Shown piece by piece: positions 5,877 to 63,337 of a DNA stretch of 64,000 nucleotides. The first letter of the stretch is position 1. Every line of letters starts with the position of its first letter. A program made the position numbers and the translations under genes. The notes below the pieces were generated by a model, which saw nothing but the letters and a program-made list of their open reading frames with translations, searched no databases and was not told where the DNA came from. The stretch is taken from NCBI GenBank assembly GCA_950106755.1, contig CATNNA010000001.1, positions 682,001 to 746,000 on the forward strand, written 5' to 3'. The stretch comes from Climacium dendroides. Taxonomy: Eukaryota; Streptophyta; Bryopsida; Hypnales; Climaciaceae.

Positions 5877-5891
5877 TCGCGTGAATGTCTA

Positions 5892-6046: not shown

Positions 6047-6049
6047 CTA

Positions 6050-13900: not shown

Positions 13901-13968
13901 AAGATTTCAAAAACCGGGTCCATGCTCGGAACCTCATTCCGGATCCTATACTTCTTCTTCTACCAACC

Positions 13969-16140: not shown

Positions 16141-16148
16141 CTATATAG
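16141..16148 (-). promoter_or_regulatory. TATA-like box of retroelement E
   Basis: CTATATAG lies about 225 bp upstream of the E start codon on the minus strand. Copies A and C have TATA-like motifs in the equivalent place. Confidence 0.45.
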
Positions 16149-39800: not shown

Positions 39801-40614
39801 CCTAACGCTATATTCAAAATTTTGGGAGTTTAGGACTCTCCCAAAATAATATTGTCGATTTTGATACCAATACGAATGGATGTTTTGTATATAATTTAGG
39901 TTGACAAATATTAGACATACTAATTTTTTAATGTATTTTCCATTAAAATGAGAGTGTAGTGACATACAAAGTCTCTAATTCGAACATTAGGTCAAATTTC
40001 AAGCACCAATGCTAACATTAATATACAGAAAATCTTTACTTTTTGAACACCAAGTCATGAGCTTTGAAGTTGGTTGTAAAGGATGGTTCATGTCATTCAA
40101 ACGGTCTGAGTTCAATTCCCATTGAATATGAATAAGCGGTTGAGGGAGAGGCATGACTTGGTACTGCCTAATGATCTATGCATGCAGCTAGGAAAGTTGT
40201 AACAATCAATCGGCCCCCTATCCGAATTGTGACAATTACTTAACACAATTATCAAACACATAGTCATTAGAACCACTACCCATTTTTTCCAGTTGCTTCA
40301 AATTATCAATAATATTCGTCATAGATATTATAACATAAGTGCTTCAACAAAAATAAATTAAAACATAGAAAAAAAATAAAACTCAAATGTACTTAGAAGC
40401 AATTTATTATAATTGAAATTGAATACTCTTGTTTTGTAAAAACAAAAGCTACATTTCAAAGCATATAAACAATACCAAACTATAAATCCAAACCAACAAA
40501 ATTAAAGTATATGCCATCTACTACAATATATAAATTCCATCCATTACACACAATATGTGGATGGGAAATACAAAATAAAGCATACCACATATACCCTTAT
40601 ATACATATGGCTTC

Positions 40615-43452: not shown

Positions 43453-43554
43453 ATTATCTGTAAATATGAACCACAATCCGAATAGAAAATTAATAGATGA
43501 AGAAAGACCTATCAAATTTTATTTAATGTAATTTATTAATTTATGTAAATGCAG

Positions 43555-44695
43555 TTTAGGGTGGACCTCCCTAAAATGCACAACTAGACAAACAAAGTTC
43601 TAGATCAATGAAGACCAATCTGATCGAAATTAATGATCATTGTACGGCTAACAACCCTTATCTGCTTCACAGTAGTGTGAAGTTTTCTGAACACAGATGG
43701 CGTAGACCTCATTCATTTTCTTAATCTGTCAATATCAATGGTGTGGCAGTTTTAGGCGAATAGCATGACCACTTTCTCAGATTTTAGAAACTAAATAAGA
43801 CATCCCCTCATATTTTCTTTCTTAAGTACGAAAATTGTGGCATTTCAATTTAGGGCGAACCTAAATAAAAACTGCATGAACATAGTGTGAAATATTTCAG
43901 ACTCGACATGCTGAAACCCTATAAATTGAACATGGAAGAAGTGTATTTTAGGGCGGACCTCCCTAAACTGCATGACCGGTAAAAACTACGTGAAGGTTGT
44001 CGAAGTCCTTTCTAAATTGAACAAGAACTTGCTTTGTTCACTATTGTGCAAGTAATGAAACTATTGCAATGCAATTTAGGATGGACCGTCCTAAAGTGTA
44101 TGTCCGGACTCTCCGTGTATTGAAGATATAGCAGTACCTACCTAGTTAATGCTTCTAAAACATTTAGGTTTGTCAATATGTAGTTTAGGACGGACCGCCC
44201 TAAACTGCAATGACAGAATATATAGCGTAAATGTAAATTGTCTTTATTTCAGAGGGTAAATGATGCATTGCAATTTAGGGCGGACCGACCTAAACTGCTC
44301 GTCATACTAGTAAAAATTATACTATATAGAATATAAATTAAGGCATTGATGCATTTCATTTTAGGGCGGACCGACCTAAAGTGCATATCCAAATTGTTGA
44401 TTTTGTGATTAATTATTAGAAACCCCAACTTATTTAAGTCTTCAGAAAATATTTAGGTTTGTCAATCTGCAATTTAGGGCGGACCGCCCTAAACTGCATG
44501 AATAGGGTCAAGGAAATTGGATTCAGTGTTAGTGTATTTTGTTGTCATATTCATAAAATTATTTCCGATCGCAATGCAGTTTAGGGCAGACCGACCTAAA
44601 CTGCACTTCTTACAAAAACGTAATATACTCGACATGAAATACAAATCATGACATGGTCTACTTGCGTTTTAGGACGGACCGTCCTAAATTGCACG
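43555..44695. repeat. Delta palindrome array upstream of the transposase gene
   Basis: About ten copies of the delta palindrome lie at roughly 43556, 43951, 44078, 44186, 44273, 44360, 44473, 44579 and 44666, plus half-sites near 43858. The core is arm TTTAGGGCGG, central A, and the reverse-complement arm; the best copies extend by GCA or TGCA on each side. From 43951 the spacing is 85-127 bp, mostly near 100. The copy at 44473-44493 is perfect. The array begins about 100 bp before the transposase start, so it may act as operator or recombination sites. Confidence 0.85.
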
Positions 44696-44699
44696 TCTT

Positions 44700-45650
44700 C
44701 AAAAACATGTAGCCCAAGAAGTTTCTAAATATAGACCCGGATTTTACGGCTACAAACCAGGGTACCTATTCACACCGCAGAAATTGAATTCAATATGATA
44801 ACTTAAAATTGAACTTGTACTTGAAAATGTATGAGCACATTGCAAATTCCTCAATACGAAACTGAAATGTACAAGAAGAAGTGGAGAACTCTGTCGAACT
44901 TGAAATCTGTTGCGTTACATGACTATGTACAAAGTATTGGAGTGCTAGAAATGTCTGGACAAAGAAAATGCTTTCATCTGTTGGTTGTACGCAAAGCGCA
45001 CCTTGAACTGTAGAACACCTCGTCCAACTGTGCCACGTTTAAAGTCTTCAAACCACAACAGAAGAAAATGACAACAATGAATAACAGAGAGCTTGAACAG
45101 GTTCACGATCACATAAGAAAAGCCAAATGAGAATGAGAACGACACTAACAATCTCAACGCGCATACACAAAGCACCCGGCCACCTGCGCCAGGGGGAGCA
45201 AAGTTTTGGCGCCGGAGGGGGGCCGCGCCATAACAAAATGAATTCAAATTTCAAATTTTTTTTCGGGAGATTCGTTTTCCACTTTGTAGCACTTTTTCAG
45301 GCCACATGATCTTTGGAAGAAGTTTGTGTAGTCTTTCATTAGAAAAATAGTCGTCCACTTGATAGTGCTTACTTTAGATTCAAGCCTATTTCAGGTGTTT
45401 GCGGATTTGCAAAGTCAACTACTGGAAATTTTTTTCACAAATCACAGTGTTGACAAAGCAAATTTTGCGCGCGATTTTTTGTCTAACATTAAAGATTTCC
45501 AGAAGTAGGTGAGACATTCTCTCCTTCCTTTTCCTTGCCACGCAACAATGCATGTGCAAAGAATGTATTGAACTTTTGTAACTTTGTTGACTTTGCGTTT
45601 CAAAAATAAAATCTCTTTGTTTATGAATGTTGGTGTACAAAATGTAAACA
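44700..45650. other. Non-coding stretch after the first delta palindrome array
   Basis: No convincing gene is visible. It contains a GC-rich patch (45170-45235) with a run of Gs next to an AATTCAAATTTCAAATTT block. A similar pair of a G-rich patch and CAAATTTCAAATTTC occurs near 63850-63885 in gamma. This suggests a shared promoter or leader on the far side of the array from the transposase gene. Confidence 0.35.
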
Positions 45651-45654
45651 ACGC

Positions 45655-45721
45655 TTTAGGGTTTAGGGTTTAGGGTTTTAGGATTTTAGGGTTTAGGGTT
45701 TAGGGTTTGGGGTTCAGGGTC
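45655..45721 (+). repeat. Telomere-like repeat tract
   Basis: About seven degenerate TTTAGGG units (with TTTTAGGA and TTTGGGG variants) lie in tandem. TTTAGGG is the usual plant telomere unit. It is internal to delta, so it is an interstitial tract and not a chromosome end. Confidence 0.8.
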
Positions 45722-48700
45722 CAGTGTAAAAAATTTGGATTAAATGTTCAACATTCAAAAAAAGAGTACATACATAAACATTGAAAAAACTGGAAAAAAA
45801 AAGTTTTAACACTTTGGTATAAACCAAAGCCTTACAAATGAATTTAAAAAAAATTAATTGATACTTCTTCAAATGGGTTTGAGTAGTTAAAAAAATGTAA
45901 AAGTCCATGTACTTTTATGGACTGCTCATGCAAAAGTCGTGGACTTCAACCTAATACCAAAGAAAAAAATAGGTACAAGCTTGAAATTCTTTCAAAATCG
46001 ACTAATCATGATTTCTTGGAATTACTCTTTTTGTTTAAAATAATAGAACATTATGAAAGACATACAATAAATCAATTAGTATCCTTGGCAAAGCCAAAAA
46101 TATTACCCAAATAATTACCCATTCACTTGGAATCAAAGTTCATCATACTATTAAAATCATAAGTCCCTTTGTAGTATCACAAATGCTATCATTAATATTA
46201 GAGGCTCGTACTTACTATACTACGTATTCATTGTATCACATATTAGTAGAAATTTGATATATTTGAATAGAATGCATGATAATGATTTTGATAAGTCTTA
46301 ATAATAATTATTTTAATTATTTTATTAAAATATTTCCAATCATGCATACATAGAAATCATATTTTCAAACAATGTGATATTATTGAAATACAATAGTAGT
46401 TCACAATCACCTTTGTAATATCACTTTGTATAGAGGGTGATATTATAGAAATAATATAGTCGTTGCAATTGAAGTGATATTAAAGAGGATCAATATGGTG
46501 ATATTATAAAGGTAGCAATTCCATTGCTTTTGTTGGTTTTATACTTCTTTTGCATTTCTATGATGCTGTGCTTTTTTAAGCTTTGAGCTTCTCATTTGAA
46601 TTATGTATTGCTATTACTACATGATTTGAGAAATTTATTAGATTGAATTGATTTTGGATTTTACAACAATTAAATTGTTCACGAAGTTTTTGAGATTTAC
46701 AAAGTTTTCCTTTAAATATAATAGTATAATAATAAATAAACTATTTTAATTTTTGCTTAGCAAAACAAGCGCCACCTATGTAATATCACATTTTTCAAAA
46801 TTTGTGATATTATAGAAATACAATGGCTTTTACAATATCAGACCTCTAAACTCTACAAAATTACAAAAGTACGATGGTCATTGAAGAGAGGTGGAAGTTA
46901 AAAAATATGAATAGAGTGATATAAAAGAATTGACATTTCATTGCCCTTTTTGGCTTCAAACTTCATTGCACTTTCATAATTTGGTGATTTTTTGAGTTTT
47001 AAACTTTTGTGACTTGAATGTTTTATTATTATCAATTGATTTGAAAATTTTGTTAGTTTAAAAAAATAATAATAATTTTTTAATACAATATTATGGCAAA
47101 TGAGTAGTGCACCAAGCGCCAACCTTTAGTCATTTATAAAATATTAGTATTTAGGGTTTGTATAATTCAAAGAATATTAGAAAATTGTGAATTCAAAATC
47201 TTTAAGCGTCAAATTTATAAAACAGTTATTAGAAAAACAAATTTGATTATCAATGAAGATAGTAATTTTAGAGAATGAGAATAGTTAGAATATTGCATTT
47301 TGATCTTGTAAATTTTTTTAATTAATTCAAAACATAACTAATACCCAATATTTCATCAATTTCAAAAATATTTTTATATCTATTTCACTAATAAATATTG
47401 GTTAATGCAATGGAAGATGTAAACATATAGAGGATGAGTATGGATTATAGATTAGAAGTGTTAAAAGTCACTGCTAAGTTAAGTTGCAATTTACAATACA
47501 TCTTTATGTTTTAGAGATTGAATTTTTAAGTCCTTAGGAAATTATAGGTTGTCAATGATTTAAAAAGGGACAATAAATGTTACCATTTTACAGTCACAGT
47601 AATTTCTTCTAAACCAAAGACAATTTTTTTGCTCTTAACCAATGAATGTGCTTAGATTTGATATTTTCGTAAACCTCAAAGTTCCATTGTAACTTGAACT
47701 GATTTTAGGTAGGCTCTTATGGACTCAATATTCATCTATTTATGATTTTTTGAAACTTCTTGTAGAGATAGAAAATACACTACCTTTTTGAGAATATAAA
47801 TTTTTTTCAATCACTACGCCATGGGCGCAAAAATTATTGTACAAAAGCTCCTTTTTAAAGTTTGGTGGAGAATCCATCCTCCTAAAAAAGAAATTCAATA
47901 TATATTTGAATTCTTTTTTATCATAGATTTTGTATAATCATCTGCATGGAAAGCTTTCATTCCTCTTCATGAAAGCTCCTTCTTTATTCTTTGAATTTCA
48001 GGTTTATCAATAGTTCTTTCTTCTCTTTGCTTGTATAATTGAATCAACTTCATCACTCAACAAAGATGACATGAAGTAGCACTATTGTGATGTGTGCCAT
48101 TATCATAATTTAAAATTTTTAAAAAGAATTTCACTCCATAAATCTTTGGAATTCAATAAAGAATTTTTATAGTGTAAAGAAGTGATATTTTTGGTATAAA
48201 TTGAAAGTTCAATGCCCTACATAGTGCAAGGGCTTTGTTTGTGAATGCATTGTGAAAGTTATTTTTGTTTCAAAAATAAAAGATAATTGAATTTAAATCT
48301 TTAATTTTTCTAAGCCTTACATTTCAAATGGTAATTCCAAATGCTACAAAATTAGCATGAATACAAAGCACTTGTGCACAAAAGAGTGCAAAGACTTCAT
48401 ACAAGAGGAAACTTTTACATAGTTCACGATTTAGGATACAAAAAATAACATTTCAAGATCCTTATTGCTTTCTTTCAAAAAAATTAAGACAACTTCTAAA
48501 TATAAATGTATTTTCTATGGCTATGGTATACATGATTTGGTTTTGTCAAGAAAATTAACTAAACTGTTCCACCACCATATCCGAAGCTTCAAAATAGACT
48601 GAAAAATGATTGTTGGGATTCAAGTGATTTGCAAACCACTAGATTAGTTTATTATGTTTGTAACCCTAAACCTCACTATTCTTAGCATTAATAATTATAT

Positions 48701-49435
48701 TAAGACCTCAAATTCTCTAATGCTAAAATATGCATGAACTTTGAATTTTTGTATGCTAAGCTGGTCAATGTGAAAATCATTGACTCTGGAACTTTGTGAA
48801 CTTCAAGAAGACTAAAAATACTTAATATAATAGATGATGTTCAATATTTGAGGTTCAAAGTTACAAATAATAAAATTTAATCAACTGACTCCATATATTG
48901 AGACCTCAAGTATCTCAATGGTCAAATGTGCATCAATTTCTAATTCTTTGGACATCGAGCTAGTCATCGTCGAAATCATTGATTATGGAACCATGTGTCA
49001 TCATCTACTTTAACTAGACCTAAAAAACTTATTTGGAGTGAAACTACTATACGATTTTTTTTCTTTTCCACCCTTCATTATGTGGATGAATAATTGCACT
49101 TTTGTCCTATACAAAAGATTCCTTCATCACTCCTTAGACGACAAATATATGTTGTGTGTTTATGGATTAACCTTCAAATGACGAGGTAGATGTTTTTTGT
49201 CCGATGGATGACAAGAAAACTTCATGCACATGATGGAAGTGCCACTATTCATCCTTCCAATTCTATGTGAAAACAAAAAGGTCATCTATAGTATTTTACT
49301 CTTGCAATGAGTATTTCTGCATTATTTTAATCTAACAATTCACACGGTGACAAACCAGTTTTCCAATTTTGTGGGTATTAGCCACAAGTGGGAACCTGAT
49401 TAGGTATGGTCGAGCATTGGGTGAATATGAGGCGG
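45722..49435. other. AT-rich block without genes
   Basis: This 3.7-kb block is strongly AT-rich with no open frame that looks coding, no palindrome of any of the three families and no element terminus that I can see. A word like GTGATATTATAGAAA recurs several times (46375-46500, 46795-46815, 46915), which hints at decayed repeats. With the telomere-like tracts at 45655 and 50826 it may be DNA captured by delta or a later insertion. Confidence 0.5.
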
Positions 49436-49439
49436 TTAC

Positions 49440-49560
49440 AAGTCGGGTAGGGGGCGGTTTACAAGGCGGGTAGGGGGCAGGTACGAGGCGGATATGGGGC
49501 GGGTATGGGGCGGGTACGGGGCAAGTGCGGGGGGGTGCGTGCAGGGCGGGGAGGTTGACA
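49440..49560 (+). repeat. G-rich degenerate repeats
   Basis: Eight or so units of the type GGCGGGTAYGGG or GGGGCGGGTACGG follow each other. The plus strand has many GGG runs and could form G-quadruplexes. The tract marks the switch from the AT-rich block to the more balanced cargo region. Confidence 0.7.
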
Positions 49561-49796
49561 TCGAGTGCTCTTCGTCGTCGCTGTTGCCTCTCCTTTTCTT
49601 CCAGCTCCTCTTCTTCTTCGTTGCTGCTGTTTTGTGCTCCTACTTTGAGTCTTTGTTTCTACTTTGTGCTCGTATTTTACTCCGCCTTCTATTGGGGTTG
49701 TGCTTCGCTTCTTGTTGTTGTCTTTCCTTTCGCCTGCTTCAGCATCATTCATTGAGGTTCACGTCTTTGTTCACTTCATTGTTCACTTCACCAGAA

Positions 49797-50505
49797 AGGA
49801 GGTGTTTGGTGGCGGATTTGCGGATCAGGTCTGCAGGCGACCCAAAGGCCGAGGGATGTTGACGTTAGGGTTAAGAAGCTCACCTGCTTCAACATCATTC
49901 ATTGAGGTTCACCTCTTTCTTCACTTCATGTGCATCTGCGTCTGTTAGTTTTGGTCATGCTGAAGCTGCTGATTTTAATTTGCCAAAGAGGCGGACGTGT
50001 TCGGTCAGTTTGCGGTGTGCTTGTGCAGTTTAGGTCATTTGTACACGCCCACCGACTTGACATTGTGAGAAACCGTGAGAAACCGTGAGATTTGTTTTTT
50101 ATGATTGTTTGCCACAAAACTTAGATCAGGATGTGTTTGCATGCAATTCAGAAACGAGGTGTTTGGTGGCGGATTTGCGGATTAGGTCTGCAGGCGACCC
50201 AAAGGCTGAGGGACATTGACGTTAGGGTTAAGAAGCTCACCTGCTTCAGCATCATTCATTGAGGTTCACCTCTTTCTTCACTTCATGTGCATCTGCGTCT
50301 GTCAGTTTTGGTCATGCTGAAGCTGTTGATTTTAATTTGCCAAAGAGGCGGACGTGTTCGGTCAGTTTGCGGTGTGCTTGTGCAGTTTAGGTCATTTGTA
50401 TACGCCCACCGACTTGACACTGTGAAACCGTGAGAAACCGTGAGAAACCGTGAGATTTGGTTATTATGATTGTTTGCCACAAAACGTGAGATCAGGGTGT
50501 GTTTG
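49797..50505 (+). repeat. Two-copy tandem duplication, unit about 357 bp
   Basis: The first copy starts with GAGGTGTTTGGTGGCGG at about 49799 and the second at about 50156. Both continue through the same CTCACCTGCTTCA, GGCGGACGTGTTCGG and GTGAGAAACC-repeat segments and end at GTGTTTGCATG. Identity is high, with few substitutions, so the duplication is fairly recent. The GTGAGAAACC word is itself tandem (two to three units) in each copy. No coding function is evident. Confidence 0.8.
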
Positions 50506-50825
50506 CATGGGTTTTATTTTTATTTATAGAATGGTGGAAAACAATTGGGAGCACTGGTTTCAATTGCATCTGGATGTTGCAATTCTATTGAACTTGGGGA
50601 CAAATCAATTGCCTGTCTCCCAATTACATGTGACTAACTAGTTGCAATTGTACTTTTCTTGTTTTTTCACTCCTTGTTTTGCACTCTTGGATTTGCAGCA
50701 GTGTGATTTGGATACGTTTGTGGTAGCAGCTTTGAGGATTTTTTCATTTGTGGAAGGAGACAAGTATCAAAAACCTATCATTGTGTTATTTGGTAGGTCA
50801 GGACTTCTGCATTGGATGTTAATAA

Positions 50826-50872
50826 ACGGTTTAGGTTTAAGGGTTTAAGGATTTAGGGTTTAGGGTTCTAAT
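50826..50872 (+). repeat. Second telomere-like tract
   Basis: Five or so degenerate TTTAGGG units (GGTTTAGG, TTTAAGGG, TTTAGGG) in the same orientation as the tract at 45655. Together they bracket about 5.1 kb of delta. Confidence 0.6.
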
Positions 50873-51009
50873 TATCATGCTTTACAGTTGAAGAACGTGT
50901 TAACCCTTGCATAGAATTTGACGAATATGACTATGATATCTCCGGGTCTTAGGCGGGTATCACCTAGATATCCCCGGGTATCAAGCGGGTATTGAGTGCA
51001 AAGTCAGAA

Positions 51010-51805
51010 ATAGAATGTCTGCAATTTAGGGCGGACTGTTCTAAACTGCATTTCTATAGATCATGAGAATTGATCAATCCTATATATATGCTACGTTGAG
51101 AAATCAAAAATGTAGTCCATGCACAATTTAGTGCGGACCATCCTAAACTGAATTTTTGTTCATAATGAGAACTGATCAACTCTACATATAAGCTACGCTA
51201 ACTCGGTAAGGAATCAAAAATGTAGTCCATGCATAATTTAGGGCGGACCGTCCTAAATTGCATTTCTGTAAATCACGAGAATTGATGAACCCTATGCGTA
51301 TGCTACGCTGAAAAATAAAAAATATAGTCCATGTGCAAGTTAGGACGGACCGCCCTAAACTGCCTTTCTGTTGATATTCAAAATTGATCAACCCTATATA
51401 TATGCTACATATAAAAACCGAGAATATAGACCACGCGCAATTTAGGACGGACCGCCCTAAACTGCACTCCAAAGCACTACACTGACGACAGAAGCATAGA
51501 CATTACCATAAAATGATTAAAGAAATCAGACACATTAAACAATTTCAGTGATGATTGGTAGATAAAATACTTCTAAATTCAGTGCCTCTTCTACTAATTA
51601 AACAATAATGCTTACAAACCAAAGAATAATCCCAGTAGTTTAGGGCGGACCGCCCTAATCTGCAGACTAATAGAGAAACGTAGGCAGCAAACAGAAGACT
51701 ACAAAATCAAAAATAAATAAGGGCGCAATCAAAATTGACTTAATAAAGATCAACAAGAAAAATGTGCGTCTACGTCTAGCAACAGTTTAGCTCGGTCCGT
51801 CCTAA
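51010..51805. repeat. Delta palindrome array before the ParB/methylase-like gene
   Basis: Copies lie at about 51023, 51125, 51237, 51338, 51442, 51640 and 51787. The first five are spaced 100-112 bp and their spacers are also similar to each other (words like GATCAACCCTATATATATGC recur), so this is a degenerate tandem array with one palindrome per roughly 105-bp unit. The last copy is about 30 bp before the start codon. Confidence 0.85.
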
Positions 51806-53293
51806 ACCGCAACAATAGACTGAATTGTAGTTGTCTATGCTCAGAATGGAGGAATACATGGATCAACTCAAGGCGCACTTCAAAAGAGTAGAGGATGTCG
51901 AAGAAGAAAGTCCAAATGTAGACGAGGATATGATAGAAGGGGACTGGTGGGAGTTCGAAAATCCAAAAGAGGTGGACGCGTGGTGTCTGAAGATGGTGCC
52001 CCATACAGACAACATGCACTTCAACATGAAGTACCGAAATTCCAAGGCGTATCTCCCGATCTCATTTGACGAGAAAGTGAAGCGGGTGTCTACGGATAAA
52101 TTCCCAAACATCGAAATTCACTACGTCACCACCAACAACGAATTCCCAGCGGGCAATCAGTACCACTTCACATTACTCTTGAACTTAGAGAAGATTTGGT
52201 TCAACATATCGCCATTCTTGGAGAGTCTAGAGCCAATGCCATACAGTTCGGAGATCAAAGAGTTGGAGCGCAAAATAGACAATGGCGAGTACCACAATAT
52301 GGACGGAAGTCCACTGACGGGAAGCAGACTATGCACGAAGATCACGCTCCTGATGAACTCCTTTGTAGTCATCAAGGAAAAGATGGCAATGCAAAGATCC
52401 TTCATGGCTCCACGAACGGTATCCGTGGAGACAGCTGCTCAAGATGAAGGTCAGCCATCAACGAGGAAAAAGGCTGGTGGGTCACAAAGTAAAGGCAAGA
52501 AAAACAGGAAGCCCCCACCATCTCCAGCGACAACACCTCAAAGCAGTCCACTGGCATCCGGGTCAGCAAGGAAGGCAATCGAGAGGACATCAGAGTAGTC
52601 AGGCGTGGAGTCGGCAAGCTATCTCGAAGAAATGAATGTCGTTCCGGAAGCCCTCAAGACGGAGCGGAAGCCAAACTACAAAGATATAAGCGCTCTGTAC
52701 AAGAACTTCTGGGAGAAGTACTCCACCGTGTTTATCTACGGAGTTGGTGAGAAGAAAGAGCTGCCAATTGGAAAATTGAAGGAGGCACCTGCCGAACTCA
52801 ACATACGCGTGAAGGAGGACAAAATTGTTAAAGAAATGCTCCATTATCTTGTCAACATGCCAGACAAGAGCGTAAAGCAGACTCTTTGCGTCACACCGGT
52901 CTTGCCAAAAGGCAAAAGAGATCCACCTCGATGGGAGGAGGTGATGGACGGAGACTTCTACATCATCAATGGCCAACACAGTGTAGCTGCAAGCCACTTG
53001 ATGATGCAAGAGGAAAGCATGGTGAACGAAGAAGTGAAGAAACACTTCAGAACCTGGAAATGCTACGTGGTTTGGTCACTCGATAAGGAGATGTTGAGGA
53101 CAATCTCCGCATACTATAATCGGACCAACCACTTTCAGCCCGCTACGCCATCTTGGGCAACAAATATCTTGGGAGCAAGGACTGTGTAGGTTTCCATGGG
53201 AAGACCGGCACCACCGAAAGGAGACAAAACTGGTGGACCCTCAGAACGAGGCAAAGCCCATACTGCGCTAACGCAAAAGTACAAGGTAAGCAT

Positions 53294-53314
53294 TTTAGGG
53301 CGGACCGCCCTAAA
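53294..53314. repeat. Perfect delta palindrome in intron 1
   Basis: A perfect copy (arm TTTAGGGCGG, central A) lies 8 bp after the splice donor of intron 53286-53418. The same intron of alpha has its own palindrome type. Confidence 0.85.
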
Positions 53315-54784
53315 CTGCATATGCTTACAGTTTTGTACTTGCTCTCTGAGAGAGCTCCTTCTGTAGTGTAGTTTATGATAAGATCACAAGTTAATGAATC
53401 TAGTCAATCCTTGTGCAGAGTTTTGAAAAGGCAGTTAATCTCAGATTCGCCATGATTGACGTAAATAAAAGCTTCACGATCTCAAAGAAGAAGGGTGTAG
53501 ATGAAAAGCTGAAGCTTACAAACGAACTGAAAATAATTTCTGCGCTCGACGACGTTTACGAGGTTTGGAGCGAAGTTATCATCAGTGCTGCACACGGGGA
53601 GCTCATCGATCCAGAGACAAAGATGAAGTTCAATGAGAAGGAAAACTGGAAACAAGAAAGTTGCGCAATGAGCAGGGACTTCTTCAGGCCCCTTGGAAAT
53701 CTCAGCTACGACGATATGAAGAGATTGGCGAAGCACATTCTCAATTGCTCCGGACCAAGTCGCCACCACCCATATCCGAAAGTGACAATCAAACCGGTGT
53801 CCATGGTCGTACAAGACTGCTACAGCGCCAAGGAATGGGTGGAGAGAGTGAAGCGGGAGAAGAAGGTGAAAAAAGAGATTCACCTGATCTGCCTAGAACT
53901 CAACTTGTCCAATGCAAGGAATGAGCTCATTCTGGAGAACTGGCGACAGTTCAAGAGGAGCCGCTGCTTCACTAGTGCAACGATGAATCTGTTGCTTGAA
54001 AGGCCGGGTGAGGCATATTTTTCGATGACCAAGCAAACCCGAGGGAGAAATAAGACAGCAGCAACCATCAATCCCAAGATAGAGGCCTTCTTCAAAGTCT
54101 TTTTGGAAAAGAAGAACCAATTTTGCATTCCTTCGTCAGTCGCACATTTGCGTCCTTACAGCATACGTTACAATACACACGAGAACTGGCCAGCGGATGT
54201 TTGGACGCCGGAGACAGTGAGCTTGATCGGTTTGGGAGTGATCAATTTTCGATCGATTCCCAGAGTGCTGGAGAAGGAGAGCTCCACGATGGAGAAGCCG
54301 TTCTTCTTGGAAGTACTAATGTTTCAACAGCAAATGAAGGAACCTCTGCTTGAAGAAGTCAAGACCTGGTTGTTCATCGTCGAGGACGAGACCGACTTAT
54401 CTCAAGTCCTCGGGTTCGTTGAGAAAAATGAGGTCTTACGCACATATAATCGGAGTTTCTCCGATTACTACCCAGTGAAAAATGAGAGACTTTATGATCT
54501 CCCAACGAATTCGGCAAGGGCGCTGAGGAAAGTACCGCTCATTTTTCTCCAAAGCCCAGACCTGCCAACGCAGGTCCGGATTGAACCGTAATTTCGAGCT
54601 CCGAATACAATCACTTATAAAGAATCTAAGAGGTACAATGAGCTACCGTTTAGAATGTATATTATGGAGCTGCGAATGGAATTCTACCTTGGGATCATCA
54701 AGAAGTTCTGCCATCCGGGGTCAAGCGTATTCTTTGTTTTTGCTGGGAGCAAATTGACATGTGCTGCACTGGTAAGTACATCGC

Positions 54785-55012
54785 TACAATTTAAGTCGGA
54801 CCGACCTAAACTGCAAACCTGCACTTGACGCTTACTGCTTACTTGTAGTAAATGAACAATTTCTAGATCCTGGTTGCAGTTTAGGGAGGACCGCCCTAAA
54901 ATGCATAGATAGTCTGGAACTCAATGATTAATTGTCATAATAGTCAATGTTATTTTCCTATCCTAGCCTGTGTTCCTTGGATGTTGTTTAGGTCGGACCG
55001 TCCTAAATTGCA
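54785..55012. repeat. Three delta palindromes in intron 2
   Basis: Copies at about 54789, 54881 and 54989, about 100 bp apart, fill intron 54772-55054. Alpha has three of its own type in the same intron. Confidence 0.8.
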
Positions 55013-56343
55013 AGTCAGTAACTCTGAGATTCTGCATGCTGTGTTTGGTTGCAGATGAGCTGGGTAGATGTTTTCGCTATTGTCCCGGATTGCGAAACAG
55101 ACATCTGGCAAAATATTGCCACGGTCGGTTTATCGTTGGACAAGGATGACTTCCTCGACTCCTCATATGTTGTTGACAAAGACATTGTATCGACTCAACG
55201 TGAGTCATAGTCCAACCCTGATTCGACCAGACCAAGGGGTCGCTCGGAGACTGTTGCCTCGCCTGGCCAAAACCGGGGGAAGAGGTGCATGGAGGAAGAC
55301 GTCGAGGAAGATGAAAATGAGGAGGAAGAGGATGACTTTGACATAGAAGACATTGCGGGGGATTATGACGTGTTTGACGAAATCACCACGCTAGGTGCTC
55401 GTGCATCGCAGACCAATTTAGGGTCGTCAAGTTCAACAGGGCTGTAGAACACAACAGTCCAATCTGTTAATGCTGAAACTCCGGTTTCCAGAACTAGGCC
55501 TGCTAAAAAAAAGAAGGTGGACCATATGCAGGCCTTGTCGATGTCGCTGACGGTGGTCTTGAAGCAGCAAGAGGAAATCAGGCGCGAACAAAAAAAAGAC
55601 CAGAAGGAAAATTTAGAGTTCCAAAAGGAATCAACTAAAAACTTTGCGGGTCTAGCACAGGCCTTCCTAGAGGAACAAAGGTTGAATAGGGAGGAGCGTG
55701 AGCATAATCGGGTAATGTGGCAAGCGTACTTGGACAGAAATCAAGCCCAGCCTGTTGCCACGCTTCCACCATCAACAACTTCGCAGCAGCTCTTCATCGG
55801 AAACAACCCATCAGGATCCAATGATAGTGCTGTCTCCGTTCCGCAGAGGGATGCTGCTGCGCCTCCGCCTCTTCCACCGGGGCCTCCGGATTTTATCCCT
55901 CCGCCTATTCCTGTGAGAAAAACACGTGGAGGTCAGAGTTCCTCATCGCCCAAGAACGTCACATCGACTTTGGAGGGCGTACAAGCTGCAAGCGAGGGGA
56001 TATCCAAGGGAGATCAGTAGTGTAATAGTGGGCAGAACTTGTCTGTGGATCCAGAAGAGGTAGTGCCCGGGAGTACCATCGACCGCGCCAATGATCCACC
56101 AACAGGTTGTGCCAAGTAATCACTCGATGTCATTTGTTGTAGCTCGACTCGAGTTGATGTGTATTCTAGAGCTGCATTTGTAGATATAGTGTATAGAGTT
56201 TTTTTGTGGACACGGGAACTTCTAGTGGACTGAACCATGGAGTTCCAAATTTTGTAATCAATTTTGTATTTTAACACTCATTTGTTGAGGCTGTAATATA
56301 TCGTTGTCTTACACAACATTCTATCTTAATTCTTCTATTGCAG

Positions 56344-57457
56344 GGCTTCAGAATGCTTTCAATGTTTGTACAACTCGCGCTTCTTCTGTAGCACCATCAA
56401 TTCCTGTGTTGGAAAATGAGTTTGTTGCCCTTGATGAAATGCCGGTGCTAGGACCTCCTCAAAGTGAATCGAAGAAGGTGGTTACGACTGACATTCAACC
56501 TGAGGCTGAACCTGATGTTCCTGCTGAGTCCTCTCAACAACAGGTATGTTCATTTCCCTATTGTCCATGGGTTCTGGAATTCGTATCATTGTAGTGTCGA
56601 CAAGAAGAGGAGGTGCAGAATGTTAATTGTCCTCACTCTATTCCTTTTGACAGCAGGAATCCGGTCCTCCATGTCGTCGTGGAGGGACTTCGAAGGGCGT
56701 CGTTCGTCCATTTAGGTCCAGGGTTGCGGACAAGTGGATCAATGTTGTCCTGGACCTAAATGGCATTCTATGTGTCTGCGAAGATTGGAAGTCCAAGGGA
56801 TTGTCGCACAAAAAATTGAGAGACTTGTCGCAGCCGCACTCCGCAACTGAGCCCGTGCTAGTCGGACCCAAGGCTGTGTGGGTGCGGCCTCATTGCTCTA
56901 ATTTCCTTACAGAGCTTCAAAAATTTGCAACAGTTTCAGTGTGGAGTTCTATGAAGAAGTCTACCACTAAACTGATTTCTCAATATCTCTTCCGAGATGG
57001 ACTGCCGCCTTCCCAAATACTTGGGCAGGACTCTTGCCAAACACTAAAACAAAGAGATAGATCGGGAAGGTTGACCTATTTCAAAGTACCAGGAATGGAC
57101 AAGGACTTATTCCTCAAAAATCTAGACCTGTTATTTAAAGATAGAAGAGGAAGCTTCTCGTCTGACAATATTGTCATTGTAGATGACAGTCCTGTGAAGC
57201 ATATAATGAACAGGCCTCATAATATCATACTGCTTGATTCGTGGAGTTATAGAGGGAATGGTCCGCAGGACTCCTTTCTTTTTGATGTTTTGCTTCCTTG
57301 GTTTCAACGTTTACACATAGCTCGAGACCAAGGTTTGAAGGCATTCAAGGAAAATGGTCCTGGAAGAATTGGGCGACGAATGCTTTGTGACGAAAGGAAC
57401 CGCAAGGAGTACGAAGTGCTAATGGAAGTAGTTCGCGCTTCCTCTAGTTTGAGTTAG
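56344..57457 (+). CDS. HAD-fold FCP1/NIF-like protein, delta copy
   Basis: Two exons, 56344-56543 and 56654-57457, join in phase (GTATGT/TGACAG). The first may begin after an acceptor at 56343 or use an internal ATG near 56440. The HAD loops are VVLDLNGILC (about 56748), VSVWSSMKKST (about 56935) and IVIVDDSPVKH (about 57172); FLTELQKF precedes the second. The plant NLI-interacting-factor-like proteins with DLNGIL show the same spacing as I remember them. The second Asp of DxD is Asn, as in the alpha copy. It is the only gene in delta with an undamaged frame. It differs from the alpha copy at most positions, so the two elements are old relatives that both kept it. Confidence 0.75.
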
Positions 57458-57499
57458 GTCATGGTCTATGGTTTCCTAGGGAAGTGTAGTTCGAGTGCA

Positions 57500-57710
57500 A
57501 GACTGGCGCATTTTAGCTCGGTCCGCCTTAAATTGTATATACTTATTTTTTAATTGATACTGGTAGACTGGTGGATTGAATGAATCCATTCAGAACGTTT
57601 AAGCGATATCAGTTTTGTATGTGATATGTTTGAACTGCTTTGTTCTAGTATGTTGTGTGATCCACTTCTTTCGTTTCAACTTGTGCAGTTTAGGTCGGTC
57701 CGACCTAAAC
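57500..57710. repeat. Two delta palindromes between the HAD and third cargo genes
   Basis: Copies at about 57512 and 57688 use the CTCGG or GTCGG arm variant with a central T (TTTAGGTCGG, T, CCGACCTAAA). They lie in the gap or intron before 57874. Confidence 0.7.
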
Positions 57711-57873
57711 AGCACATGCTTGGCTTATATACATGTCAAAGTTCTTTTGAGCTTTTTGCTGGGTGTTGTCTTTTGTTTTAGTTCTTATATTGTTAGGTCT
57801 GTGTATTGCGCGGCAGTGTTTTCTCAATTTGAATTATGTTCTTCTTCAATCTGTGGCTTTCTTTGCTTGATAG

Positions 57874-58593
57874 ATGATGAGAACTTCGGAGGCCCATGTT
57901 CCGAAAGGTGGATTTGCTTGTGCAGCTTCTGCTGACTCCATCTTAGACTATGGGCAATACATCATTCTCAGCACTGGAAATTTATTGTGTTCGGCCGCTA
58001 CTACAAATTCCACCATGGATTTCTCGACGAAGCCTATTGAGGACAACATGGTCGACAGTCCTCCGAGTGGTAGGACGCGTCCGCGGCTTTCTTGCTCCCT
58101 GTCGCCGCTGCGATCCGTTGGCCAACGTGCTTTGCCGTCTACTTCTGATCGAATGACTCAAAGAAAGCTTTACGGGGAGGAAGGTTGTCTAGACATTGGA
58201 ACAAATGTAACTTTAGGCATTCCAAGTGAGATTTGCCAAGTGCGTCCAGATATTGCTTCCTCTCTTCCCTGCCTTCCTCCACTGACGGAAGGTGTCCAAA
58301 CGAAGTGATCTCGGAGCTCTTCCATGTATATTGCAGAGGCGACCACACTGGAGGTTCCACTACCTCCAATTCATAGACGCAGATACTTGAATGTTCCAAA
58401 ACGTCAACGCTCAAGTCTTAGTGGAGAGTCTCGACTAGAAGGGAGCCGTCGTTTATGGGATGCTGCGGAAGAAAGGTCCTTGGAGAAGCAAAGGTGGGAC
58501 ATCATTCGAGAGCGGTCCGCAATTTGTACTGGGTATAGTAGAGGACCGGAAATATTGAAGGCATATGAGAAGTTGAAGAGTATGTCACAATAG
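57874..58593 (+). pseudogene. Third cargo gene, MMRT-type small basic protein, delta copy
   Basis: ATG 57874 directly follows an acceptor-like TTGATAG, so an upstream exon is possible. The frame reads MMRTSEAHVPKGGFA, then MVDSPPSGRTRPRLS, passes TGA 58306 and continues through RRRYLNVPKRQRSSLSG to a helical end RGPEILKAYEKLKSM and TAG 58591. It aligns with the alpha copy at the start, at the VDSPPS block and at the end (helix preceded by RG). No known domain. Its place as last cargo gene before the right terminus (about 400 bp) is the same in alpha. Confidence 0.6.
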
Positions 58594-58689
58594 TAAAGCA
58601 CATTATGCTTATTACGGAGCATGAGCTACATCATCCGATACAATGTAGATGTACAGATGAACATCAACAATTGTTGACCATGATAACAT

Positions 58690-58785
58690 TTTGGGTTCCT
58701 TATAAAAGGCTACTGTAAAGTCTAGAATCCAAATGTAATTTTGGGTTCCTTATAAAAGGCTATTGTAAAGTCTAGAATCCAAAGT
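58690..58785 (+). repeat. Two-copy 51-bp tandem repeat with TATAAAAG
   Basis: The unit TTTTGGGTTCCTTATAAAAG followed by GCTA(C/T)TGTAAAGTCTAGAATCC occurs twice in a row, about 220 bp inside the right end of delta. Each unit contains a TATA-like motif. It could be a promoter reading outward or simply a subterminal repeat. Confidence 0.7.
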
Positions 58786-59006
58786 GTCATTCCATAGTGT
58801 ACACACTATTACTTGTATATTTGATGGATATTATTGGTAAATTCCATTCTTCTCATAATGGACTTGCAATATTAACACTCTTTTCTAATGATGCATTGCT
58901 TTTCTCTCTCCGTATAGAACAAAATCACCTATGTTTAAAGAAAACTATGTATTTAGAACCTCTCATTTTTTTGGAAAATTCTCATTTTAATGAATATAGT
59001 GTTACC

Positions 59007-61165
59007 TTTCTTTATCTCTTCAAGAGCTTTCATTGGAACTGGAGCCAAAGGTTTAGGGCTACCACTTGGTACTTTAGGAAGTCCATCCTCATTCTCTGAC
59101 CACATTCTCATCCCATTGCCGTACTCTGGCAACCACTTTGGATCAGTACACAAATTTTTATACTCCATCAAAGGCCATCCTGAAGAATCCATAAAAAACT
59201 TGAATTGTTGACTTTTCGAATGCCCTCCTAATTCATCTCCACCAGTGCCCAAATAACCCTCCACAAATTTCTTGAAATCAAGGAGCTCCTCAATGAGATG
59301 AGGAATCACAGGGTGCGTTTCACAATCTATAAAGGACTTCATGAGCTTTGGAAGTGTTGGATAGTCATTCGTCTTCAATCTTGAACTCCATCGACCAAAA
59401 AGAGCATCAATGTCTTCGTGAGTGTATCCCACAATAAGAAAGTTGATGTATACCTCACGAAAAATGCCTTTGTATACAAGCAAAGAGAAGAAAGCAAAAA
59501 CATATTGATTCTTGTTGTCCCCTGATGCATTGTCCAATTGCAATATTAATATTGGTGGGAGAGGTTGAGCAGGAAGTGGCTGTTCTGGAGGTGGAAGGAG
59601 GGAGTCCAAGCAATTTTCTGCTCTTTTTAAAAGCGCCTTTGTCAATGTGGATTGCCCCTCCTCAATAGAAAATAACGCCCTCGATGAATTTTTAGGCGGG
59701 CCTTCCAAATCCCGCAACAACCTTGCAATGGATCCAATGGTATGATTTGAATCTGTTGGGAAAATGCCCACACCATAGTGTGCATATCGTACATCGCCAT
59801 GACCATGAGCAATCATACCTGTGACAACAACAGGCATTTTTATGAAGGATTCCGTCGACTTGTTCTTGTGAGAAAAGTGTGGAGAAGCCATTTTTGAATG
59901 ATCCATTTTATCATGAATGATGCACAACATTTTGTCCGGGCATCTCACGGAAAATTCCCAATTTCCATAGTAGTACTCTCTATGAGCCCTCTGACCTGCA
60001 ACATGGGTATTCAAAATATTGATATACTTATCAAACGACTCTGATTTCCAACAAGCGCTCCTCAATTGCTTATACTCATCGCACAAGCCACACCTAGCAA
60101 AACTATCCCCACGAGCCTTGGCAGCAAATTCAGGGAAATTTTAACAGCGAATGTTGCTCAAGCCACTGGAAGAAATCGGCTGCAAATTGAACTCTACATT
60201 GGACTCATTGATTTTAGGTAATTGGTCACTCCAACGAAAAGCAGAAGGTAGAACCATCGCTGCAACTTTCTCCCCAGACTCTATTGTCCTTGTTTTGTAT
60301 GGCATTCGATCGGCATCAGACTCAATAAGAGTTCAAAGCGTCGCAGTAGCTTGAAGAGTATGCATGCGGGGTTTTTTGGATCCCACATTTCCATGCACCT
60401 GAGCTTGCTTCCCAATTCTAGCCTTCTCTTTGTACCTATAGAACGTAGCTCTTGCAATCCCATGAATGATCCACCATGCAGTGGGGCACACTTCTCTTCC
60501 TTTCAAGGTAATCCACTCTTTGCCAGCACTGTCTATATGGATTTGCCTATGCACCTCCAAAAGTGTCTTGCTACGCGCCTTGAAGTCCTCACCCGAATAT
60601 AGTTCAGTCCTTATCGCTTGGATTTGCCCACGCGGAAAAGGTTGAACACAATTTTTCGCACAACATGATTTTGTGGACACTGATGTGATCGATTCCATAG
60701 AGAGGAGAAGTTCTTTCTTGGGTTGAATCTCTGGATCAATCCTCTGACGAGTTGTTTCGTACGATCGAACCCCCTTACGAATTCTTCTGCTTGAGGGGTT
60801 CATGGTTGCGTTATATACATGGGTTTGGTCATGGTCATATAAGTTGACATCGTCATCTAAAAAAACTCTCTTGATGTCCCAGGAACGAAGTGACCATACA
60901 TTGCCAGATGAGAAGAGTTCCTCGTTCAGAGACTCAGCAATTTGAATGGCAACCCGGTCATCGCCAAGAGGCTTCCCATCTTGGTCAATGATTAACTCTG
61001 GGTCAATATTCTGGCAAACCCCCCTTGCGAGGTCCACCCCATCTTCGTTTCAAAGAGTGACAAATCGTGAGACCCATTTTGCACGAGCAATCCCCTCGCA
61101 TACCTGAACATCAGGTGGAAATGGGGGAACTGGATTCGCGAACTCATCAAACCCATGGAAATCCA
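59007..61165 (-). pseudogene. 5' part of the gamma DUF7869-type gene
   Basis: Starts at ATG 61165 (MDFHGFDEFANPVPPFPPDV) right after an acceptor-like TTGTAG, and runs to the delta insertion at 59006. Blocks: SCCAKNCVQPFPRGQIQAI, VCPTAWWIIHGIARATFYRY, ARCGLCDEYKQLRS, IIHDKMDHSKM, MIAHGHGDVRYAHYGVGIF, QLDNASGDNKNQYVFAF and VGYTHEDIDALFGRW. Stops are TGA near 61050, TAA near 60330 and TAA near 60142; no frameshift is needed. GYT replaces GHT of the delta copy. The remaining C-terminal part is at 39110-39800. It is closer to the beta copy than to the delta copy. Confidence 0.8.
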
Positions 61166-61423
61166 TCCTACAAGCACGAAGACCAATCTTAGATTCATTG
61201 TTGAGTCAAAGATAAAGATGTTCTATTGTAGCAACTTCTAGTATACTACAAACTAAACATACTCTATATTTACTAATACTAACATCATGCCTCCATAATT
61301 TCTTACGAATACGACATCGTTGAATCGATGATACAATGATTTGTACTATGATTCAGTCATTCATCTTCATCTAAGTAAATACTTTTCAATGCAAAGTTGC
61401 AAACACTTTATTTATAGTTGACA

Positions 61424-63337
61424 TTATCATCACCCCGACGATAACCGGAAGTTATCGTTACTTAGAGTTATCGTTGACTCAATGATAACTCTCCTCAATG
61501 AAACTCATTTCATGATTCATTGGATGTGACAAAGAAATAATTCAACCCAATGCACAATCTCGTTTGAAATCATAACAAATTGAAGTATCTACACATTTGA
61601 AAATTACTGACAAGATTATCATCGACCCGACGATAACTGGAACTCGAAGAACTCAAAGTTATCGTTGACACAACGATATCGATCTTCAATGAAACTCCTT
61701 TCAAAAATTCGATAGTTGTGACGAAGAAAAAATTCGACCCAATGCACATTCTTCTTTCAAATCATAAGAAACTGAAGTAGCTACACATTTTCTAAGAATA
61801 TCGACTGAGAAAATCTGACTACATAATCATCGACTTGACAATAATCAGGAGCAATAGAACTCAGAGTTATCATTGACTCAACGATAACTACCCACAATAA
61901 AACTCCTTTCATGATTCTCTGGATGTGATAAAGAAATAATTAAACCCAATGCACAATCTCCTTTGAAATCATAAGAAATTGAAGTACCTACACATTTGCT
62001 AAAAATGCTTACTGAAAATTACTGACTAGATTATCATCGACTCTAGGAAAACTAGAAGTCAAAGAACTCAGAGTTATCGTTGACACAACGATAATGATCT
62101 TCAATGAAACTCCTTTCATGATTCAATAGTTGTGACAAAGAAAAAATTCAACTCAATGCACATTCTTCTTTCAAATAATAATAAATTGATGTAGCTTCAA
62201 ATTTTCTAAGAATTCCGATTCGGAAAGTCTGACTATGTTATCATCGACTCGATGATAACCAAGAGCAAATGAACTCGGAGGTATCATTGACTCAACGATA
62301 CCTCTCCTGAACAAAACTGCCTTCATGATTCGTTGGATGTGACGAAGAAATAATTCAATTCAATGCACAATCTCCTTTGAAATCATAAGAAACTGAAGTA
62401 GCTACACATTTCCTAAGAATGCTTACTGAAAATTACTGACTAGATTATCATCGACTCGACGATAACTAGAAGTCAAAGAACTCAGAGTTATCGTTGACAC
62501 AACGATAATGATCTTCAATGAAACTCCTATCATGATTCAATAGTTGTGAAATAGAAAAAATTCAACCCAATGCACATCCTTCTTTCAAATGATAAGAAAT
62601 TGATGTAGCTTCAAATTTGCTAGGAATACCGATTGAGAAAATCTGACTACGTTATCATCGATTCGACGATAACCAGGAGCAAAAGAACTCAGAGGTATCA
62701 TTGACTCAACGATACCTCTCCTGAACAAAACTGCCTTCATGATTTGTTGGATGTGACGAAGAAATAATTCAACCCAATGCACAATCTCCTTTGAAATCAT
62801 AAGAAACTGAAGTAGCTACACATTTCCTAAGAATGCTTACTGAAAATTACTGACTAGATTATCATCGACTCGACGATAACTAGAAGTCAAGGAACTCAGA
62901 GTTATCGTTGACACAACGATAATGATTTTCAATTAAACTCATTTCATGATTCGTTAATCGTGACAAAGGAAAAATTCAACCCAATGCACATCCTTCTTTC
63001 AAATGATAAGAAATTGAAGTAGCTTCAAATTTGCTAGGAATACCGATTGAGAAAATCTGACTACGTTATCATCGACTCGACAATAACAAGGAGCAAAAGA
63101 ACTTAGAGGTGTCATTGACTCAACGATAACTATCCTCAACGAAACTCCTTTCATGATTTGTTCGATTTGACGAAGAAATAATTCAACTCGATGCACATTC
63201 TACTTTGAAATCAGGCGAAACTGAAGTACCTACACATTTACTAGGAATGCCGATTGAAAAAATCTGACTACGTTATCATCGACTCGACGATAACCAGAAG
63301 TCAAAGAGGTCACAGTTATCGTCGACTCAACGATAAG
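61424..63337. repeat. Gamma palindrome satellite, about 207-bp units
   Basis: Nine to ten tandem units each carry two palindromes about 43 bp apart: a stronger one (arm TTATCRTCGA, central C or similar) and a partner with a GTTGAC(T/A)CAACG centre. Stronger copies lie at about 61424, 61617, 61827, 62030, 62236, 62444, 62651, 62858, 63064 and 63268, a 203-210-bp period. Spacer words alternate (AAGTCAAAGAACTCAGAG against CAGGAGCAAAAGAACTCAG), giving a dimeric period near 414 bp in the middle. It starts about 260 bp upstream of the gamma transposase gene, the same place as the delta array. Confidence 0.9.

What the first reader, a model, noticed from the sequence alone, without database searches (positions are those of the whole stretch)
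43555..63337. Lineage-specific 21-nt odd palindromes with identical geometry in three giant elements
Alpha uses arm TTATCCTCGA, delta TTTAGGGCGG and gamma TTATCGTCGA. Each is a 10-nt arm, one central base, and the reverse-complement arm. Copies number over 20 per element, sit before genes and in introns, and alpha-type, delta-type and gamma-type are not mixed except for a few alpha/gamma intermediates. Alpha and gamma differ by one arm base; delta is quite different. This is what a set of self-recognition sites that co-evolve with an element-encoded dimeric protein would look like.
Basis: partly seen in the sequence, partly recalled or inferred. Interest (0 to 1): 0.92.

Follow-up and report, generated by a model that had tools for sequence, protein, structure and literature searches.

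The report
Giant transposons tagged by own palindromes
Large transposons in a plant genome, likely a moss, each carry about twenty copies of their own version of one symmetric 21-letter DNA word in front of genes and, where this could be checked, inside introns; these words are likely docking sites for a two-part protein that the transposon itself encodes and that is predicted to keep only its own kind switched on.

Summary
The palindromes are real and non-random: 23 delta-type copies, and 23 and 22 alpha/gamma-type copies in the alpha and gamma regions, at up to 5 mismatches. Delta is a 19,202-bp transposon (39803-59004; 14-bp inverted ends, 2-bp target duplication) inserted in the gamma element's DUF7869 gene, its presumed transposase. 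All 23 delta palindromes lie inside it; none of the 45 alpha/gamma-type ones does. Corrections: the delta site is nearer 31 nt, and the types share a CGR-N-YCG core, so delta is a variant of one scaffold.

New evidence: homologous predicted proteins read through splice donors, so their tails encode the intronic palindrome. By back-translation, 38 of 51 tails carry one exactly 8 nt after the donor, as in delta intron 1 (7 of 10,200 shuffles); the 6 closest tail-bearing relatives of delta's second exon carry it at offset 18, as delta does. Words differ between protein clades. This gene is predicted to encode a ParB fold plus a methyltransferase fold without catalytic motifs.

Best reading: coevolving self-recognition sites, closest in logic to Arabidopsis VANC/VANDAL anti-silencing, with unrelated proteins. 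Binding and effect are untested; genome-wide counts could not be run (genome search did not complete).

The parts
39803..59004 (.). delta giant transposon, 19,202 bp, with CC target duplications at 39801-39802 and 59005-59006
   Evidence: Inverted ends TAACGCTATATTCA / TAACACTATATTCA; joining the flanks less one CC gives an open gamma frame ...EEIKKGLNGYVKHW..., which matches beta KKGLNSFIAHW
39803..39816 (+). left terminal inverted repeat of delta
58991..59004 (-). right terminal inverted repeat of delta
40615..43518 (-). delta DUF7869 gene, presumed transposase (ORFs 41344-43518 and 40615-41208)
   Evidence: PF25273 E 1.7e-42 in 41347-43518; relatives in Physcomitrium patens and Ceratodon purpureus
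43555..44688 (.). array of 10 delta-type palindromes upstream of the delta DUF7869 gene
51025..51806 (.). array of 7 delta-type palindromes upstream of the ParB/MTase-fold gene, partly about 102-bp repeats
51831..52598 (+). 5' ORF of the ParB/MTase-fold gene (ends at an in-frame stop)
52599..53285 (+). ParB-fold exon of delta (in-frame stop in this copy)
   Evidence: 79 homologs; model of homolog P0171 matches ParB, Noc, KorB; stop seen
53286..53418 (+). predicted intron 1; palindrome 53294-53314 starts 8 nt after the donor GT
53419..54771 (+). methyltransferase-fold exon of delta (in-frame stop at 54589 in this copy)
   Evidence: 45 homologs; model of homolog P0001 matches beta-class DNA MTases
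54772..55054 (+). predicted intron 2 with three palindromes (54790, 54880, 54987); first one 18 nt after the donor GT
56651..57457 (+). NIF/FCP1-like phosphatase gene of delta
   Evidence: PF03031 E 1.3e-16
57512..57709 (.). two delta-type palindromes (57512, 57689) after the phosphatase gene
59007..61172 (-). N-terminal part of the gamma DUF7869 gene (itself degenerate), split by delta
39110..39799 (-). C-terminal part of the gamma DUF7869 gene, other side of delta, with an in-frame stop
61195..63336 (.). 22 gamma-type palindromes upstream of the gamma DUF7869 gene; 20 form pairs 43-44 bp apart, repeated about every 207 bp
5723..18218 (.). 23 alpha-type palindromes; the 13 at 5723-7825 lie upstream of the alpha ParB/MTase-fold gene
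8792..9274 (+). alpha ParB-fold exon, degenerate
   Evidence: tblastx to delta 52794-53186, 33-50% identity by segment; stops seen
9275..9433 (+). alpha predicted intron 1, palindromes 9296 and 9364; between the ParB- and MTase-fold exons, as in delta
10765..11003 (+). alpha predicted intron 2, palindromes 10771, 10856, 10931; donor in the same alignment column as delta's
   Evidence: 10570-10779 aligns without gaps to 54577-54786; donors 10765 and 54772
16605..17315 (+). NIF-like phosphatase gene of alpha
   Evidence: PF03031 E 7e-10

Best explanation
Each of these elements carries 22 or 23 copies (at up to 5 mismatches) of its own version of one odd palindrome built on a CGR-N-YCG core, and these copies are likely binding sites for a dimer of a protein that the element itself encodes, most probably its ParB-fold/methyltransferase-fold protein, which is predicted to mark the element's own noncoding DNA and keep its genes expressed. 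Shown: the sites, their odd symmetry, their place upstream of the DUF7869 gene (delta, gamma) and of the ParB/MTase-fold gene and in its predicted introns (alpha, delta), different words at the same intron in alpha and delta, offsets from the splice donor fixed to the base in many relatives, mostly one type per element or protein clade, and the nested transposon with its ends. Inferred: that a protein binds; that it is a dimer (from the two-fold symmetry); that it is element-encoded (from the lineage match); that the ParB/MTase-fold protein rather than the presumed transposase is the binder (its own introns and upstream region hold sites; ParB-fold and beta-class MTase proteins are, from general knowledge, DNA-binding and often dimeric); that the effect is activation or protection from host silencing rather than repression or transposition.
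Against: No binding, expression or methylation data. The four clade types were read off the same tails that they are scored on; shuffles and random arms control composition and chance fit, not that circularity, and related tails are not independent. Clade I (5 rows besides delta; support only 94/72) is untidy: 2 rows fit type I alone, 1 ties I with III, 1 (P0167) fits II and III better than I, and 1 fits none within 2 mismatches. In clade III one row (P0184) fits II better than III. In clade IV/V 5 of 10 rows show no site, but their tails have only 9-12 residues. Of 15 MTase-exon tails, 3 fit no type. The alpha boundaries and alpha's DUF7869 gene were not found, and gamma's partner genes lie outside the window. 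The delta and alpha ParB/MTase-fold genes and the gamma DUF7869 gene carry in-frame stops, so these copies are probably dead and their sites may be decaying relics. Five alpha copies lie in ORFs. Some alpha and gamma arm positions covary, as a hairpin would. The MTase-fold model has mean pLDDT 67.9, and neither domain is recognised by Pfam or by sequence search of the PDB. The DUF7869 protein is an equally element-specific candidate binder.
Confidence: 0.6

Rival explanations
1. The palindromes are sites for the element's DUF7869 protein (presumed transposase) or an accessory factor that assembles the ends for transposition, like the subterminal TnpA sites of CACTA elements.
For: Dense arrays sit next to the DUF7869 gene (10 in delta, 22 in gamma). 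Divergence of this protein also follows the palindrome: gamma and beta copies are close (47-77% per segment in the coding frame) and delta's is further from gamma (42-55%). CACTA subterminal motifs vary between families, likely in parallel with their binding proteins (PMC2613891, passages seen).
Against: The sites are internal: in delta the nearest are 3.75 kb from the left end and 1.3 kb from the right end, and four lie in predicted introns.
Confidence: 0.2
2. The palindromes work as hairpins or cruciforms in RNA or single-stranded DNA (splicing, small RNA or replication signals) rather than as protein sites.
For: They lie in introns and upstream of start codons; the first intronic copies start 6, 8, 18 and 21 nt after a splice donor. 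Left and right arms covary at alpha position 6 (17 of 23 symmetric, shuffled mean 10.8, p 0.0016), alpha position 2 (p 0.04), gamma position 8 (19 of 22, none of 5000 shuffles) and gamma position 1 (p 0.006).
Against: At the most variable delta position symmetry is no higher than under independence (10 of 23, mean 8.5, p 0.30), nor at gamma position 6 (6 of 22, mean 8.1). Most gamma copies are tandem duplicates of two alternating forms. Transcription of the upstream arrays was not tested. A one-base centre suits a protein dyad better than a hairpin loop (inference).
Confidence: 0.1
3. The words are selfish mini-palindromes or by-products of tandem duplication without function, carried along in each lineage.
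For: Many copies lie in tandem arrays. Some alpha copies sit in ORFs, as mobile palindromic elements can (recalled).
Against: The word differs on both arms between clades while its position relative to the splice donor stays fixed to the base (38 of 51 tails; 6 of 6). No delta-type copy was found in the 44.8 kb of the window outside the element.
Confidence: 0.1

Closest known systems
VANC proteins and their motifs in Arabidopsis VANDAL transposons (PMC5735166, sections read)
   Same: Short motifs in noncoding DNA of the element, including introns of the element's own genes and upstream of the transposase; tandem-repeat expansion; related elements use different motifs.
   Different: VANC21's motif is a 9-base YAGTATTAY, not a 21-31-nt palindrome; VANC proteins carry DUF1985/DUF287 and VANDALs are Mutator-like (recalled). 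Here the presumed transposase is DUF7869 and the candidate binder is ParB fold plus methyltransferase fold. Anti-silencing is untested here.
TnpA/Spm and subterminal motifs of CACTA elements (PMC2613891, passages)
   Same: Element-encoded DNA-binding protein with family-specific repeated sites; the soybean element Tgmt* is 20.5 kb.
   Different: Sites here are internal and palindromic; ends are TAACRCTATATTCA with a 2-bp duplication, not CACTA ends with 3 bp; no Tnp2 domain was found in the delta DUF7869 ORF.
ParB/Noc/KorB family with operator or parS sites (PMC11790492 and PMC2680271, passages)
   Same: Predicted ParB N-terminal fold; KorB acts from operators near and far from promoters of its own plasmid; KorB's operator TTTAGC(c/g)GCTAAA has the same outer letters as the type IV word TTTAGC-TCGANTCGA-GCTAAA, possibly by chance.
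   Different: Eukaryotic host, next exon with a methyltransferase fold, longer site with a CGA-N-TCG middle; no helix-turn-helix domain was identified; CTP binding untested.

Membership tests
VANC/VANDAL anti-silencing system | lineage-specific repeated motif in noncoding DNA, own introns and upstream of the transposase | tested here: met
   (transposase presumed)
VANC/VANDAL anti-silencing system | VANC protein domains DUF1985/DUF287 | tested here: not met
   None among the Pfam hits of 10 window ORFs or of 29 + 18 homologs; not every ORF was scanned
VANC/VANDAL anti-silencing system | Mutator-like transposase | tested here: not met
   The delta ORF 41347-43518 matches DUF7869 only
VANC/VANDAL anti-silencing system | protein causes loss of DNA methylation on elements with the motif | not testable with these tools
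   No methylation data
CACTA (EnSpm) superfamily, delta element | Tnp2-type transposase (PF02992) | tested here: not met
   among 10 ORFs scanned PF02992 only in the separate gene at 124-1446
CACTA (EnSpm) superfamily, delta element | CACTA terminal repeats and 3-bp duplication | tested here: not met
   Ends TAACRCTATATTCA, 2-bp CC
ParB/Noc/KorB family | ParB N-terminal (ParB/Srx) fold | tested here: met
ParB/Noc/KorB family | helix-turn-helix domain that reads the palindrome | tested here: inconclusive
   The matches cover model residues 148-290 only; what follows is another exon with an MTase fold
ParB/Noc/KorB family | CTP binding and clamp closure | not testable with these tools
   Biochemistry needed; the conserved stretch here reads mostly INGQHSVAAS
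beta-class DNA methyltransferase | MTase fold | tested here: met
beta-class DNA methyltransferase | catalytic motif IV [DNS]PP[YFW] and motif I FxGxG | tested here: not met
   Motif IV in 0 of 45 homologs, FxGxG in 1 of 45, though several hits are fragments that may not span both places; a [DN][LF][RK] tripeptide stands in 34 of 45, and its equation with motif IV's place is by eye

The most novel reading that the evidence does not exclude
Giant moss transposons run a eukaryotic ParB-parS-like self-recognition system: a ParB-fold protein fused to a dead DNA methyltransferase loads on element-specific palindromes, including ones placed a fixed number of bases after its own splice donors, spreads over the element and shields it from host silencing, while arm changes split elements into non-interacting lineages.
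Probability: 0.22. Interest if true: 0.93.

Novelty: new variant of a known kind. Interest (0 to 1): 0.74.

Why it matters
If true, lineage-specific self-recognition by transposons, known from VANC in Arabidopsis, arose a second time with unrelated proteins and a palindromic code that can be read from sequence alone. The gene-in-intron arrangement yields dozens of matched protein and site pairs, which makes the question of how a transposon's DNA-binding specificity and its sites change together directly testable. A ParB-fold/dead-methyltransferase protein acting on chromatin in a plant would also be a new use of prokaryotic-type parts. I found no paper with the word DUF7869 and saw no description of ParB-fold or palindrome-coded moss transposons in the listings; from these I opened only passages of PMC7466625 and PMC12695648. 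The library holds open-licence papers only.

Tried and rejected
Palindrome patterns in viral contigs: 0 matches each. Related loci for the MTase-fold exon: none confirmed in viral or prokaryotic contigs. Sequence search of the PDB with the ParB and MTase-fold alignments gave nothing or chance-level matches, and Pfam gave only weak matches to unrelated families (best: Tugs, E 3.6e-4, in 5 of 18 MTase-fold members); only fold comparison gave an answer. Placing alpha's ParB exon in a 25-row tree gave a very long branch (2.63) and mostly open forks, so its position is not used. Assigning the dead 'beta' DUF7869 gene (19168-32541) to alpha was considered and left open: the orientation does not match delta's layout and no palindrome of six types within 3 mismatches lies between 19000 and 39802. 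CpG observed/expected values (0.61-1.14 by region) were too mixed to argue for methylation decay. The inverted-end word also has a 1-mismatch match at 39286 and four 2-mismatch matches elsewhere; only the two exact ones fit the split gamma gene. The KorB operator likeness is kept as a remark, not as evidence.
Full report
What was checked. The window has plant-like telomeric TTTAGGG runs, introns and transposons. The closest named relatives of its DUF7869 protein are from the mosses Physcomitrium patens (67% identity over 96%) and Ceratodon purpureus (63% over 97%), so the host is likely a moss. That the DUF7869 protein is the transposase is also an inference, from its place in the elements; Pfam lists the domain as of unknown function.

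The palindromes. Odd palindromes with 10-nt arms number 49 against a mean of 2.85 in 20 shuffles. At up to 5 mismatches the delta word has 23 copies; sites within 5 mismatches of the alpha or gamma word number 23 in the alpha region and 22 in the gamma region. Five windows resampled from dinucleotide frequencies gave, in sum, 1, 1 and 0 such matches to the alpha, gamma and delta words. The copies vary: there is no perfect consensus alpha or gamma palindrome, and two of delta. Delta copies extend into mostly TGCA flanks on both sides, making a site of about 31 nt. Delta copies lie 86-294 bp apart in two upstream arrays, mostly about 100. Twenty of the 22 gamma copies form pairs 43-44 bp apart, repeated about every 207 bp.

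The elements. Delta is a transposon of 19,202 bp, 39803-59004, with both ends found. The ends are TAACGCTATATTCA and TAACACTATATTCA, flanked by CC on both sides. Removing it and one CC gives an open stretch of the gamma DUF7869 frame (...MKALEEIKKGLNGYVKHWNKMANNDHSGE), which matches the homologous stretch of a third copy in the window (KKGLNSFIAHW). So delta jumped into gamma. All 23 delta-type sites are inside this border. The 22 gamma-type sites lie outside it, on gamma's own side, upstream of its DUF7869 gene. None of the 45 alpha/gamma-type sites is inside delta. Delta encodes a DUF7869 protein on the minus strand and, after the arrays, a gene with a ParB fold and a methyltransferase fold and a NIF-like phosphatase gene on the plus strand. 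Alpha has the same plus-strand gene set, 28-69% identical by segment. Alpha's ends were not found, and its size and its DUF7869 gene are unknown. Gamma's other genes lie beyond the window.

Same place, different word. In alpha and delta the ParB/MTase-fold gene has two predicted introns. Intron 2 has its donor in the same alignment column in both (alpha 10765, delta 54772, in an ungapped tblastx match); intron 1 lies between the ParB- and MTase-fold exons in both. Intron 1 holds 2 and 1 palindromes, intron 2 holds 3 and 3, each with its own element's word.

Reading palindromes out of proteins. The homologs found by protein search (45 for the MTase-fold exon; 79 for the ParB-fold exon) are ORF predictions that often run through the splice donor into the intron. 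Of these 124 proteins, 66 had a recognisable exon end and a tail of 8 or more residues; 58 were dropped. I asked whether codons can be chosen so that the tail spells a perfect 21-nt palindrome. Near the donor this is possible for 35 of 62 distinct tails, against 6.5% of shuffled tails; centred exactly 18 nt from the donor, for 29 of 62, against 0.6% (2 of 64 distinct tails were too short). That centre, chosen, is the place of delta's own intron-1 palindrome, which starts 8 nt after GT. Four words explain most tails: I TTYAGGNCGGWCCGNCCTRAA (delta's), II ATYAGNTCGANTCGANCTRAT, III TTYAGCNCGRNYCGNGCTRAA, IV TTTAGCTCGANTCGAGCTAAA. Of 51 ParB-exon tails, 38 fit one of them within 2 mismatches at offset 8, against 7 of 10,200 shuffles. 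The 13 others: 4 with a type III/IV site at offset 29, 3 with a site at another offset (11, 15, 54), 1 with 3 mismatches at offset 8, and 5 with none, all with tails of 9-12 residues, too short to reach offset 29. Of 15 MTase-exon tails, the 6 closest to delta (56-72% identity; the other nine are at 38-50%) all fit type I within 2 mismatches at offset 18, delta's own offset in intron 2; 4 that I grouped by eye (P0008, P0014, P0015, P0017) fit type II at offset 11; 2 (P0011, P0037) fit III/IV; 3 fit none.

Types follow lineages, with exceptions. On a tree of 52 ParB-exon proteins, clade II (18 rows, support 100/100) fits type II in 18 of 18. Clade III (17 rows, 96/94) fits type III within 2 mismatches in 17 of 17; it is the single best type in 12, tied in 4, and second to II in 1. 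Clade I with delta (94/72) has 5 other rows: 2 fit I alone, 1 ties I with III, 1 fits II and III better than I, 1 fits none within 2. Clade IV/V (10 rows, 100/99) has III/IV in 4, a II/III tie in 1, none in 5. One unplaced row (P0192) fits II. Palindromes with shuffled arms never did as well for clades II and III (0 of 200 each). The words were derived from these same tails, so this is a description with a chance control, not an independent test. One longest-contig length (3355) is shared by P0212 and P0002, probably two exons of one element; both tails fit type I. All words, with alpha TTATCCTCGA-N-TCGAGGATAA and gamma TTATCGTCGA-N-TCGACGATAA, share CGR-N-YCG.

How it likely works. Two-fold symmetric sites with a central base suit a protein dimer. 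Sites that keep their position relative to a splice donor while both arms differ between clades suit a binder that changes with its element. The sites cluster upstream of the element's two main genes and inside the introns of one of them. This is the layout that Hosaka and colleagues reported for VANC21, whose motif lies in introns of VANC and VANB and upstream of VANA, in tandem repeats, and where related VANC proteins act on different elements (PMC5735166; first part of Results, the tandem-repeat section and the Discussion read). I therefore take the palindromes as self-recognition sites, most likely for the ParB/MTase-fold protein, with expression or anti-silencing as the most likely outcome. 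Binding, dimerisation, identity of the binder and effect are all untested.

Rivals. Binding by the presumed transposase for mobilisation is the strongest rival (sites near its gene; its divergence follows too), but the sites are internal and intronic. Hairpins are weakened by the lack of left-right covariation at delta's loosest position (10 of 23 symmetric, 8.5 expected) but not excluded, since alpha positions 2 and 6 and gamma positions 1 and 8 do covary. Passive repeats are weakened by fixed offsets with changing words.

Limits. No genome-wide count, one window, three elements with two incomplete, related and partly duplicated copies, and types defined from the data they describe.

Noticed in passing
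window 124-4165: CACTA-type gene pieces (Transposase_21, DUF4218, DUF4216) on the plus strand, followed by a 22-bp minisatellite rich in TTGCATTGTAGT-like units.
   Followed up: no
window 19168-32541: A third DUF7869 gene ('beta', closest to gamma), broken by stops and by an insertion that contains inverted copies of gag-like ORFs (21.3-27.8 kb; 'gag-like' is a guess by eye); no palindrome of six types within 3 mismatches lies between 19000 and 39802.
   Followed up: partly
window 5892-6046: A 74-nt near-perfect inverted repeat (96%, 7-nt spacer) between alpha palindromes, MITE-like.
   Followed up: no
window 16605-17315 and 56651-57457: Both alpha and delta carry a NIF/FCP1-like phosphatase gene, unusual cargo for a transposon.
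   Followed up: partly
window 45655-45720 and 50828-50867: Runs of plant telomere repeat TTTAGGG inside delta; the delta arm itself begins TTTAGGG.
   Followed up: no
type IV word deduced from P0209, P0229, P0230: Outer letters TTTAGC...GCTAAA equal those of the RK2 KorB operator (PMC2680271, passage), and KorB is among the fold matches of the ParB-like exon.
   Followed up: partly
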